Shown here piece by piece: positions 36,944-48,869 of a DNA stretch of 51,811 bases. The stretch is from assembly GCA_012728785.1 (NCBI GenBank), contig JAAYEK010000256.1, positions 1-51,811 of the forward strand. Reading direction: 5' to 3'. The first letter of the stretch is position 1, and each line of letters starts with the position of its first letter. This DNA is from Bacillota bacterium (GTDB lineage Bacteria; Bacillota; UBA4882; UBA8346). The notes under the pieces are model-generated. The model was not told the DNA's origin and ran no database searches. It saw nothing but the letters and a program-made list of their open reading frames with translations. Position numbers and translations under genes: made by a program.

Positions 36944-39052
36944 TTATTGATTAACCACGTCCCCCAAGACATACATGGCTTCATCTATATAAGGGTCGGA
37001 CTCAACTTGCTTTTGCCATTCATTCTGTTTATCAATAACTTTCTTATCCTTTACATAACCAAAATCATTATTGATCATCGTGGCCTTTAAATAAGTCCGC
37101 CCGCTAGTATAATTCTTTAATCGTTCGACTTCGTTTCCTAAAATTTGCTGTTCCTTAAAAACCTCGGTTAACTGTAAGGATTGATTAGTATTCTCTTGCT
37201 GGTCCATTACATTTTGAACATGTTCGGAAATCAGTTTAAAATAAGGATTTGCTTTTACCCTTTCTCCACTTTTAGCTTTGATTTGCTTAAGATCATACCC
37301 GGCCGGCCATCTTCGAAAGTAAGTGGCGGAAATGGTATCCCAAGGGAGGGCATTTGGCAAGTCTTTCTCTCCTTTTAAATACTCATAAACATAAGGTAAC
37401 GGTATATCGGCGATGACTCCCTCCATTTGGGTCGAACCACCGGTGATCCGATAATATTTTTGGGTCGTCAGTTTCAATGAACCAATCGGTTTCAAAATAG
37501 AAAATTCCCTGGTCAAAAAACGGTCTAGAATACTGTCCAAATCGGTATAAACTTGAACCGTGCCCTTTCCGTGTGTCCGGGGGCCTCCGATGATAATCGC
37601 CCGATTATAATCTTGGAGGGCTGCCGCAACAATTTCGGAAGCAGAAGCGCTAAAGGTATTGATTAAAACAACCAAGGGCCCACTGTAAACAGTATCCTTA
37701 TCGGGGTCGTTTAAAACATTAATATGTCCGGCGCCGTTTCTTACTTGGACTACCGGTCCATTCCTGAAGAAAAGACCGGACATGGCGATGGCATCATCCA
37801 AACTGCCTCCTGTATTATCCCTTAAGTCGAGAATAATTCCATCTACTTCTAGGGCATTTAGCTTTTGGAGATAATATCGAACATCTTTCGCAGAACTTCG
37901 CCCTTTATTCGATCGCGAGTCCCAATAGAAAGAAGGTAGATCAATGTAACCGAATTTTTTGTGCAACTCCTGATTAGTGATAATTGCTGCCTTTGCATAT
38001 ACCTCTTCAATCACCACTACGTCCCTGATAATCGGAATTACTATAATTCGACCATCCGGTTTTTTAACGGTCAGCCGGACCTCAGATCCTTTTTTGCCTC
38101 GTATCTGTTTCACCACATCATTCAGGGGCATATAGGAGATATCCATCGGTTCCCCCCGGCCCTGCCCCACTTTCATGATCAAATCACCGGCTTTCAGTTC
38201 TCCTTGCCGCCAAGCTGCGCTACCTACGACAATTTCATTAACTTTCACATATTCCCCATCCGCTTCAAGCATGGCGCCGATTCCTTCCAGGGTTCCCGAA
38301 AGGTCGGTCTCAAATTCCTCGGCTTGTTCCGGTAAAAAATAATTGGTATGGGGATCAAAACTCCCGGCAATGGCATTCAAATACTTTTCCAACTGATCAT
38401 CGTTGGTTTCGTTTAATAACATTTGAAACTCTCTTTTTAAACTTAAGGATAGCTTCTCTCTGGCTTGGATCTCCAATTTAGACCGAAAAACCGAGGTTTT
38501 AGTCTTTTTGGATTTAGCTTTGTCATCGACGCCATCGAGAGACAAATAATATAATAGAGCTCGATATTTAAGGGTCTTCCTCCATAACTCCTTCTGTTCG
38601 TCCTCATTAGCACAATAATCTCTCTTGTCCGGATCAAGCTCTAAACTTTCTTCTTCAGAAAAATCAAAGGGATGTTTCAAAAGTTCTTGATAATAATCTC
38701 TCACGTCCGTAATCCGCTTTTTTAGGATCGCTGAGGATTCTTTGACCAAACCGTAATTTCCCTTTTCCAATTCATCATCAATTTTAGTTTGATAATGTTT
38801 TAACTCCTCAATATCGGATTTTAATAAAAATCTTTTATTCGGATCCAGTCTTTTGAGATAAAGGTCGAAAGCTTTTAAGGAAAACTCATCGTTCAATCTG
38901 ATCTGGTTATAATGCCAGTTTTCCAATGCTTGAATCATAAGCCTGGTAATGACCGTATCTTTGGCAATATAATTATCGGCTAAAACAACGCCGACAACTA
39001 GCAAAACAATAACTGCCAAGGGTATCAAATACTTAAAAATTGGTTTTCGCAT
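36944..39052 (-). CDS. prc: Tail-specific (C-terminal processing) protease Prc/Tsp
   Basis: A 702-residue S41A protease of the E. coli Prc architecture: signal anchor (about 7-24), the long N-terminal TSP_NTD domain (KDTVITRLMIQALENWHYNQ through about 190), PDZ (about 215-310: EGIGAMLEADGEYVKV, GDLIMKVGQGRG), the protease core with catalytic Ser in NTFSASASEIVAAAL and Lys in RTHGKGTVQ, and the C-terminal DUF3340-type domain (about 560-660). This long form is typical of diderms, where it acts in the periplasm with peptidoglycan hydrolases. The neighbouring M23 peptidase fits such a partner. ATG at 39052 with AAGGA eight bases upstream. Confidence 0.93.
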   Translation of the reverse strand: MRKPIFKYLIPLAVIVLLVVGVVLADNYIAKDTVITRLMIQALENWHYNQIRLNDEFSLKAFDLYLKRLDPNKRFLLKSDIEELKHYQTKIDDELEKGNYGLVKESSAILKKRITDVRDYYQELLKHPFDFSEEESLELDPDKRDYCANEDEQKELWRKTLKYRALLYYLSLDGVDDKAKSKKTKTSVFRSKLEIQAREKLSLSLKREFQMLLNETNDDQLEKYLNAIAGSFDPHTNYFLPEQAEEFETDLSGTLEGIGAMLEADGEYVKVNEIVVGSAAWRQGELKAGDLIMKVGQGRGEPMDISYMPLNDVVKQIRGKKGSEVRLTVKKPDGRIIVIPIIRDVVVIEEVYAKAAIITNQELHKKFGYIDLPSFYWDSRSNKGRSSAKDVRYYLQKLNALEVDGIILDLRDNTGGSLDDAIAMSGLFFRNGPVVQVRNGAGHINVLNDPDKDTVYSGPLVVLINTFSASASEIVAAALQDYNRAIIIGGPRTHGKGTVQVYTDLDSILDRFLTREFSILKPIGSLKLTTQKYYRITGGSTQMEGVIADIPLPYVYEYLKGEKDLPNALPWDTISATYFRRWPAGYDLKQIKAKSGERVKANPYFKLISEHVQNVMDQQENTNQSLQLTEVFKEQQILGNEVERLKNYTSGRTYLKATMINNDFGYVKDKKVIDKQNEWQKQVESDPYIDEAMYVLGDVVNQ

Positions 39053-46380: not shown

Positions 46381-47370
46381 TTAGGGTACTTCTACTCCGT
46401 CAAAGATCTTTTCAATAATATCCTCGACTTTTAATTCTTCCGCCTCCGCCTCATAAGTAATAATAATCCGGTGGCGCAAAATGTCGGGCCCAATCACCTT
46501 AATATCATTGGGGACCACATATCCCCGTCCTTGCATGAAAGCATAAGCCTTAGCCGCAATCCCCAAACTGATTGTCGCCCGGGGAGAAGCTCCGAATTCG
46601 ATCAAATCGGCTAGCTCCAACTTGTACTGAGCCGGTTCACGGGTGGCCATAATCAGATCAACAATATAGTCCTTAATCTTAGCGTCCATATAAACCATAT
46701 CCACTACTTTCCGCACCGCCATGATTTCTTGGGGAGTAATAACCGGCTGAATATCGATGGTTCGGGAAGTCTGAGCCATTCTCTCCATAATCAACAATTC
46801 TTCTTCTTTGGTGGGATAACCGATCTTCAACTTAAACATAAACCGGTCTAATTGAGCTTCGGGCAAAGGATAGGTCCCCTGCTGTTCAATGGGGTTTTGA
46901 GTCGCCAAAACCATGAAAGGTTCGGGTAATGGATAGGTGTTTTCTCCGATTGTTACTTGTTTTTCCTCCATCGCTTCCAAAAGAGCGCTTTGGACCTTAG
47001 CCGGCGCCCGATTGATCTCATCTGCCAGAATAATATTGGCAAAAATCGGTCCTGTTTTCGTTGTAAAACAGCCGGATTGCGGATTATAGATTAAGGTCCC
47101 GACTAGGTCTGCCGGGAGCAAGTCCGGAGTAAATTGAATCCTTTGAAAACAAGCGTTTACTGAAGCAGCCAAACTTTTTACGGACAGAGTTTTGGCCAAT
47201 CCCGGCACGCCTTCAAGCAACACATGGCCGTTAGCGAGAATCCCTAACAGTAAGCCATCGATCAATTTTTCCTGCCCAACGACAACTTTACCGATTTGTT
47301 CCTTAATTTTGGTTATAAATCCGCTGCTATTCTTGATTGCTTCATTTACAGCTGTTAATCCTTCTGGCAT
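46381..47370 (-). CDS. MoxR-family AAA+ ATPase
   Basis: A 329-residue AAA+ chaperone with Walker A GVPGLAKT (about 52-59), Walker B IILADEINRAP (about 110-120), sensor region LATQNPIEQQGTYPLPEAQL (about 154-173) and the arginine-finger region in LDRFMFKLKIGYP. The C-terminal lid includes GASPRATISL. MoxR ATPases act with VWA proteins, matching the downstream batA and batB. I prefer ATG at 47370, eight bases after GGGAGG, over 47376. It leads the Bat cluster after smr. Confidence 0.95.
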   Translation of the reverse strand: MPEGLTAVNEAIKNSSGFITKIKEQIGKVVVGQEKLIDGLLLGILANGHVLLEGVPGLAKTLSVKSLAASVNACFQRIQFTPDLLPADLVGTLIYNPQSGCFTTKTGPIFANIILADEINRAPAKVQSALLEAMEEKQVTIGENTYPLPEPFMVLATQNPIEQQGTYPLPEAQLDRFMFKLKIGYPTKEEELLIMERMAQTSRTIDIQPVITPQEIMAVRKVVDMVYMDAKIKDYIVDLIMATREPAQYKLELADLIEFGASPRATISLGIAAKAYAFMQGRGYVVPNDIKVIGPDILRHRIIITYEAEAEELKVEDIIEKIFDGVEVP

Positions 47371-47420
47371 AAACATTACCTCCCGGCATATTGGTACTAT
47401 TGGTTTTTTTCAGTTAGAAG

Positions 47421-47825
47421 TTAAAATCGACGCCGACGCGAAGTCCGGAGCCGATCCGCCCTGATTTTTTTACTATTTCTACGTTTTTCCCGCTCTTCCT
47501 CTTGATCATTAAAATCCATCCCCGGCTCGGTTCCACTTTTGAGTAGGTTTTTTAAGACCACTATTGTTTCGCCCGGATTGGGAGCCGTATAGGGAGACCC
47601 ATCCTCGCCCCGAAAAACCGTTTCCACTTTCTCTCTAGCAAAATCAGATTCTTCAAGCCAGTGGCGGACCATGGATTTAATGACCGGAAAAAATTCACTA
47701 TGTTTTCCTTGCCCATGGATAATCCTGACCAATGTCTCACCATAATAAGAAGCATTATCCAGTCCGATTGTCAGCTTTTCCAAGGCTTGCTCACGATTGT
47801 AACCGTGCAGATCAATTGTAAGAAT
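47421..47825 (-). CDS. Smr-domain protein with probable ATT start codon
   Basis: The open frame encodes the Smr fold: DLHGYNREQALEKL at the N-terminus and LVRIIHGQGKHS (the HGxGxG motif), followed by a variable part and an Arg-rich tail (RRNSKKIRADRLRTSRRRR). Smr domains are nucleases or nucleic-acid binders found alone or in MutS2. Standard starts in frame begin only at TTG 47783, after the essential DLHG motif. The frame is open from a TAA at 47852, and ATT at 47825 lies nine bases after AGGAG, giving 134 residues starting M-LTIDLHG. The basic tail suggests RNA or DNA binding. Confidence 0.7.
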   Translation of the reverse strand: MLTIDLHGYNREQALEKLTIGLDNASYYGETLVRIIHGQGKHSEFFPVIKSMVRHWLEESDFAREKVETVFRGEDGSPYTAPNPGETIVVLKNLLKSGTEPGMDFNDQEEEREKRRNSKKIRADRLRTSRRRRF

Positions 47826-47957
47826 CGGTATCCACTCCTGGGAGTTATTTTACCTAAAATATGAGATCCGAGATTGAAGCGGAATAATAGTAATGTTTCT
47901 GAAAGGAGTCGGTAATTTCCTGCATTTCTTAGTCAAAAAGCAGAAATTTTTTAAATC

Positions 47958-48815
47958 TCACAAAGGGTCATTCTCCTCAATCGCCACCGCTGCTTCTTTT
48001 GGCGAACTGCCAAATAAGGAGTTGATCTTCTTGGTGATATTCGCCGGAAACATTTTTAAGAGTAGATCCTTGCCCTTAAGAACCAACTCTAAAATATCCG
48101 CCCTGCCGTTCCAATTATCGTAGATAATCTCCTTCGGTATTTCTTCTACCAACCTGGTTATCAATATCGCCATTACCAGAGTATCATCGACAAAGCCCAA
48201 AACATTTCCCAGGGCCTCGGGAATTAGATCAATAGGTGACACTACATAAGCTACCGCTAAGGTTATTTTTAACTTCAACTCAACCGGAATTCCATCATCT
48301 TTCATGAGCTTAATCAATAATAACACCAAATCCGGTACAACCAACACCATTTCGGTAATTCCCCCGGCAAATTTACCCCCATGTTCCTTAGCCCAGTTTA
48401 AAATCCTCTCTCTTAACTTGGGCATTACATTTTCAGGCTCTTTCTCAACTCCATTCTTAGGTTGGATCAATACTTTGCCGTTGCCTGATTCCGCAAACAG
48501 TAGGTTGGGATCGATTAAAACCCTGTCTTTACGGACGATTAGAGCCTCCCGCTTCAAAATGACTTTATTAAATCTGAGCGACAGTTTAAGGACCCAAGGC
48601 ATCAGAAAACCGGGAATACCGGCAATCTCATCGAGCCTAAGGTAGATTAGATTATCTAAACCGGTTTCAATTACGGCCCGGCCGCTAAATTTCCATCCCA
48701 TAACCCTGCCGGATAGGTTAATTGTTCCTCCTAGGTCCTCCAGAAGCAACAGCCTGCTATTTTCGTCCCACTCGCCGTTGATTACAAGATCCGCCACATT
48801 AAACTTAATTGTCAT
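47958..48815 (-). CDS. Uncharacterised protein with C-terminal DUF1232 (YkvA-like) region
   Basis: A 285-residue protein. Residues about 1-110 are beta-rich and of unknown fold. About 150-225 is a DUF1232-like part with the family core KLKITLAVAYVVSPIDLIPEA (about 177-197) and GFVDDTLVMAILITRLV. The C-terminus is a short hydrophilic tail. DUF1232 proteins are small membrane-associated proteins of unknown role. ATG at 48815 with GAGGGG just upstream; a TTG four codons earlier lacks a site. May be first gene of the smr-moxR-bat transcription unit. Confidence 0.75.
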   Translation of the reverse strand: MTIKFNVADLVINGEWDENSRLLLLEDLGGTINLSGRVMGWKFSGRAVIETGLDNLIYLRLDEIAGIPGFLMPWVLKLSLRFNKVILKREALIVRKDRVLIDPNLLFAESGNGKVLIQPKNGVEKEPENVMPKLRERILNWAKEHGGKFAGGITEMVLVVPDLVLLLIKLMKDDGIPVELKLKITLAVAYVVSPIDLIPEALGNVLGFVDDTLVMAILITRLVEEIPKEIIYDNWNGRADILELVLKGKDLLLKMFPANITKKINSLFGSSPKEAAVAIEENDPL

Positions 48816-48869
48816 TTTTCCCCTCAAGTTATTGATTAAAATAGTCTTCGGATTCCCTTTACCAAATTA

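What the first reader, a model, noticed from the sequence alone, without database searches (positions are those of the whole stretch)
47421..47852. Smr gene with no ATG, GTG or TTG before its key motif: likely ATT start
The DLHG motif is encoded upstream of the first usual start codon. The frame is open from TAA at 47850-47852, and within it only ATT at 47825 has a good ribosome binding site (AGGAG, nine bases). ATT starts are very rare and in known cases (infC) mediate autoregulation by IF3.
Basis: partly seen in the sequence, partly recalled or inferred. Interest (0 to 1): 0.5.

Follow-up and report, generated by a model that had tools for sequence, protein, structure and literature searches.

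The report
Smr nuclease gene starting at ATT
A small gene for a protein thought to act on jammed ribosomes appears to begin with the very weak start codon ATT just where its relatives have ATG, which would keep its output low and might tie it to a protein that polices start codons.

Summary
The stand-alone Smr frame (minus strand, 47849 down to 47421) has no ATG, GTG or TTG before its DLHG motif, and ATT 47825 has AGGAG nine bases upstream. In 22 orthologues from the class, the codon aligned with this ATT is ATG in 17, GTG in 2 and ATT/ATC in 3: the window (ATT), its one congener in the search, G001 (ATC), and G002 (ATT). In 14 of the 19 ATG/GTG cases that codon is the first possible usual start after an in-frame stop. 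G001 and G002 also carry an in-frame GTG three codons earlier, inside GGAGTG and without a ribosome site of its own; in the window that GTG is out of frame. So the window's ATT is well supported, G001's ATC likely, G002 undecided. infC aligns with an ATT or ATA start in 26 of 26 readable class members, so the classic AUU-start gene is intact in this lineage. Six neighbouring genes have ordinary starts. AUU starts outside infC are known (pcnB; S. aureus cvfC1): a new member of a known kind. Control by IF3 is untested, and the ribosome site is only moderate. The main rival is a one-base error or insertion hiding a GTG start.

The parts
47421..47825 (-). stand-alone Smr coding sequence as proposed: ATT start, 134 residues, basic tail
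   Evidence: (Pfam PF01713, 51.6 bits, cut-off 25.7)
47823..47825 (-). proposed start codon ATT
   Evidence: aligned with ATG/GTG in 19 of 22 class orthologues; ATT/ATC in the other 3, this one included
47835..47839 (-). AGGAG ribosome-binding site
   Evidence: -7.2 kcal/mol for AGGAGTGG; GGAGTG also in G001 and G002
47802..47813 (-). DLHG motif
   Evidence: DLHG in 21 of 22 class orthologues, NLHG in G017
47781..47783 (-). first usual start codon (TTG), after DLHG; poor ribosome site
47850..47852 (-). in-frame stop TAA closing the frame upstream
47847..47852 (-). TAAAAT, possible -10 element, which would give a leader of about 14 bases; weak, inferred
   Evidence: 5 of 6 matches; one search's two-hexamer scan found no promoter here on this strand
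47958..48827 (-). upstream neighbour, DUF1232 protein
46381..47376 (-). downstream neighbour, MoxR-type AAA ATPase; also next to smr in G001

Best explanation
The gene encodes a small stand-alone Smr protein with an intact DLHG motif, probably an RNA endonuclease of the type that acts on collided ribosomes. Its translation starts at AUU 47825, directed by AGGAG nine bases upstream, presumably with formyl-methionine as first residue. An ancestral ATG at this codon became ATH in this genus. The weak start most likely just holds protein output low. Because IF3 is known to reject AUU, output may also rise when IF3 is scarce. Shown: the sequence, the aligned start positions, the ribosome site, the ATT/ATA position of infC. 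Inferred: actual initiation at AUU, low output, nuclease activity, any IF3 response.
For: The codon aligned with ATT 47825 is ATG in 17, GTG in 2, ATT/ATC in 3 of 22 class orthologues. In 14 of those 19 it is the first ATG/GTG/TTG after an in-frame stop (read off). Congener G001 has ATC there and shares GGAGTG; L025 is the same contig as G001:C204 (same length, same bases), so not a second witness. Residues upstream of the codon are not conserved with G001. Best-placed ribosome site of the five in-frame candidates. infC aligns with ATT in 23 and ATA in 3 of 26 readable class members. Six neighbouring genes have an ordinary start codon at an aligned place in both window and G001, 6 of 6. Outside the class, 10 of the 12 relatives found were read and all 10 have ATG, GTG or TTG shortly before the motif.
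Against: G001 and G002 have an in-frame GTG three codons upstream; the window lacks it by one base. Of the 19 ATG/GTG orthologues, four (G006, G008, G013, G018) have a further usual start codon upstream and G007 is not closed by a stop in the stretch shown. The ribosome site is moderate: 15 of the 21 other orthologues score better than -7.2, including G007 at -10.2, whereas the proven S. aureus cases have extended sites. G002 does not group with G000 and G001: with ATG-bearing G004/G009 in the Smr+IF3 tree (0.695), with G017 in the Smr tree (0.721), so the ATH cases may not share one origin. Six of the nine family members with the gene have ATG. No reads, proteomics or profiling.
Confidence: 0.75

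Rival explanations
1. The genus uses the GTG inside GGAGTG, three codons before ATH, as G001 and G002 could. The window's extra base is an assembly error or a recent insertion in this one strain.
For: In-frame GTG in both G001 and G002; in the window the same GTG exists one base out of frame. In G002 the GTG begins five bases after the stop of the 482-codon frame upstream, so coupled reinitiation is possible.
Against: That GTG has no ribosome site of its own: best match -3.3 (G001) and -2.4 (G002) kcal/mol with no gap, against -6.9 and -6.7 for ATH. GGAGTG is also the best-scoring ribosome site before the aligned ATG of G013. The stretch has no run longer than four equal bases.
Confidence: 0.15
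2. Translation starts at TTG 47783, giving a shortened Smr without DLHG, or the gene is decaying.
For: TTG 47783 is the first usual start codon.
Against: Weak ribosome site (-2.4); TIDLHG just after the ATT is nearly invariant in 10 aligned orthologues; the rest of the protein is intact and 71% identical to G001.
Confidence: 0.05
3. Initiation at another near-cognate codon such as ATA 47831.
For: ATA is in frame.
Against: Only three bases after AGGAG and not aligned with the start position of the orthologues.
Confidence: 0.03

Closest known systems
infC (IF3) with AUU start
   Same: ATT after an SD site; infC of this very genome has ATT, nine bases after AGGAGG, with no usual start codon between the preceding stop and that ATT; in smr the gap is nine after AGGAG, one base shorter in register
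   Different: Product is not IF3, so autoregulation does not apply; only 3 of 22 smr orthologues have ATH, against 26 of 26 readable infC; weaker ribosome site
pcnB (poly(A) polymerase), AUU start, E. coli (PMC1780047 and PMC9410913, passages seen)
   Same: AUU lowers output of an RNA-metabolism gene other than infC
   Different: Unrelated protein; tested by experiment
cvfC1 (AUU), ccpN (AUA), citZ (AUA) of S. aureus (PMC13009471, section 10 read)
   Same: Non-AUG ATH starts outside infC; conserved among staphylococci for cvfC1 and between S. aureus and B. subtilis for ccpN
   Different: Ribosome-profiling and reporter evidence (about 10% of AUG output in RPMI medium); extended ribosome sites for cvfC1 and ccpN
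SmrB of E. coli and MutS2 of B. subtilis (PMC10897456, section 7 and passages read)
   Same: Smr domain; DLHG and HGxG as in SmrB
   Different: No N-terminal hook region, no MutS or KOW domains; DLHG kept, whereas MutS2 of this class has (S/D)LRG in the 4 copies read

Membership tests
Smr domain family (PF01713) | profile match above curated cut-off | tested here: met
   51.6 bits, cut-off 25.7; match covers profile positions 1-54 of 77
Smr domain family (PF01713) | DxH and HGxG motifs | tested here: met
   DLHG; HGQG in IIHGQGKHS
Smr domain family (PF01713) | RNA cleavage at collided ribosomes (shown for some members only) | not testable with these tools
   needs biochemistry
SmrB-type | N-terminal extension with ribosome-binding hook | tested here: not met
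   DLHG lies four codons after the proposed start; same from the aligned codon in the class orthologues, though G007's frame is open much further up
MutS2 | MutS-type ATPase, KOW and Smr domains in one chain | tested here: not met
   134-residue protein, only Smr found; MutS2 is a separate gene
AUU-initiated bacterial genes | no usual start codon that keeps the conserved N-terminus | tested here: met
AUU-initiated bacterial genes | initiation at AUU shown by experiment | not testable with these tools
   no proteomics or profiling
AUU-initiated bacterial genes | ATH start kept in related species | tested here: inconclusive
   ATC in G001, ATT in G002, but both also have an upstream in-frame GTG
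IF3-controlled gene | expression responds to IF3 | not testable with these tools
   only infC's own start position was checked

The most novel reading that the evidence does not exclude
In this genus an ATH start on the stand-alone Smr gene is maintained by selection and ties a ribosome-collision nuclease to IF3 activity: when IF3 is scarce and initiation is sloppy, more nuclease is made.
Probability: 0.2. Interest if true: 0.65.

Novelty: new member of a known kind. Interest (0 to 1): 0.4.

Why it matters
Supported AUU starts outside infC are few, and a gene finder that allows only ATG/GTG/TTG would cut this protein short and remove its key motif. If real, it adds a probable translation-quality gene with an AUU start in a lineage whose infC also uses one, which makes an IF3 link testable.

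Tried and rejected
General relaxation of start codons: not seen in the syntenic block. Six of six neighbours compared have ordinary starts aligned with G001; for four more minus-strand genes (36944, 43438, 45471, 46381) homology began at or after the first usual start codon. Many other frames were flagged; I put those on the plus strand, and 37383-37604, down to overlap with real genes without testing each.

Smr as sole copy in the genome: one search found one Smr, but MutS2 of G000 ends at a contig edge, so this is probably an assembly gap.

Promoters: one search gave no promoter upstream of smr on its strand; one search's -10 scan is only suggestive. For G001 it reported a TATTAT 50 bases before the codon, while a second TATTAT lies 20 bases before it; undecided.

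Solved structures: phmmer gave only weak MutS2 hits (E 0.6 and 0.96) and one unrelated; membership rests on Pfam. No structure was predicted.

Wider phylum: 24 of 398 genomes match profile A3 at E 1e-10, 12 of them outside the class; starts read in 10, L074 and L082 not read. No ATH start needed there.

Print: the direct search (Smr domain, AUU, start codon) listed one paper, on dinoflagellates, not opened. The listings (20 of 104 papers listed), 45, 46, 51 and 52 named no AUU start on an Smr gene; one search was on Smr proteins alone. Most subscription journals are not held.

Full report
Sequence. On the minus strand the frame opens after TAA 47852-47850 and reads NNSQEWIPILTIDLHGYN...; the first ATG/GTG/TTG is TTG 47783, after DLHG. 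Pfam names it Smr. ATT 47825 has AGGAG nine bases before it and the best-placed anti-SD pairing among five in-frame candidates. In absolute terms the site is moderate: at -7.2 kcal/mol it is better than 6 and worse than 15 of the 21 other class orthologues.

Orthologues. A whole-genome search found the gene in 22 of 29 class genomes. Aligning the DNA shows that the codon matching ATT 47825 is ATG in 17, GTG in 2, ATT in 2 (window, G002) and ATC in 1 (G001). In 14 of the 19 with ATG or GTG it is the first usual start codon after an in-frame stop; G006, G008, G013 and G018 have another usual start codon upstream, and G007's frame is not closed in the stretch shown (read off). From that codon on the protein is conserved (71% with G001, 60% with G002); upstream it is not.

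The complication. G001 and G002 have GGAGTG in which GTG is in frame three codons before ATH. That GTG lacks a ribosome site of its own (-3.3 and -2.4 kcal/mol, no gap), while ATH has one (-6.9 and -6.7). GGAGTG is also the best-scoring site before the aligned ATG of G013. In the window the gap is one base longer and the GTG is out of frame. I therefore treat the window as a well-supported ATT start, G001 as a likely ATC start and G002, where the upstream frame ends five bases before the GTG, as undecided. In a tree of Smr plus IF3 (20 genomes) G000 and G001 pair (0.978) but G002 falls with ATG-bearing G004 and G009 (0.695); in the Smr tree of 22 it falls with G017 (0.721). The ATH cases may thus not share one origin.

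Lineage context. infC was matched in 27 of 29 class genomes; G025's match was partial and set aside. In the other 26 the aligned start position is ATT in 23 and ATA in 3, after a GGAGG-type site (GGGGG in G002 and G006). One search displayed 23 of 27; there G007, G011, G015, G016, G017 and G021 have a TTG or GTG in frame further up, before the ribosome site; G000 has none. The classic AUU-start gene is therefore intact here. In the syntenic block six neighbours compared with G001 have ordinary starts, 6 of 6.

Function. The protein is a bare Smr domain with a basic tail. DLHG is kept in 21 of 22 (NLHG in G017). MutS2 is encoded separately, and in the four MutS2 copies read the motif is (S/D)LRG, like the DLR of B. 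subtilis MutS2, reported not to cleave mRNA (PMC10897456, section 7 and passages). A division of labour, MutS2 splitting and small Smr cutting, is an inference, not shown.

Known comparisons. AUU starts outside infC exist: pcnB (PMC1780047 and PMC9410913, passages) and cvfC1 (PMC13009471, section 10), the latter at about 10% of AUG output in RPMI medium. PMC1780047 (passage) also proposes AUU for lepA in two species. This finding is a further candidate of that kind. That IF3 discriminates against AUU is taken from PMC9410913 (passage) and general knowledge; nothing here tests it for smr.

Noticed in passing
G000 infC, locus L032, and 25 other class members: The aligned infC start is ATT in 23 and ATA in 3 (G014, G020, G026) of 26 readable class members, so ATT can drift to ATA.
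   Followed up: partly
L053-L056 (MutS2 of G009, G004, G022, G011): MutS2 Smr domains have (S/D)LRG, without the DxH histidine, while the stand-alone Smr of the class keeps DLHG.
   Followed up: partly
L075-L085 (L082 not read), family f20 of the same phylum: A second group of stand-alone Smr proteins, in one other family, with ordinary starts in the 10 read.
   Followed up: partly
window 47914-47948: Imperfect inverted repeat AATTTCTGC...GCAGGAAATT between the DUF1232 gene and smr; GCAGGAAAT is also in G001. Role unknown.
   Followed up: no
class orthologues of smr: Exact TATAAT 27-42 bases before the aligned start in 9 of 22, against 3% in base shuffles: smr often may have its own promoter.
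   Followed up: partly
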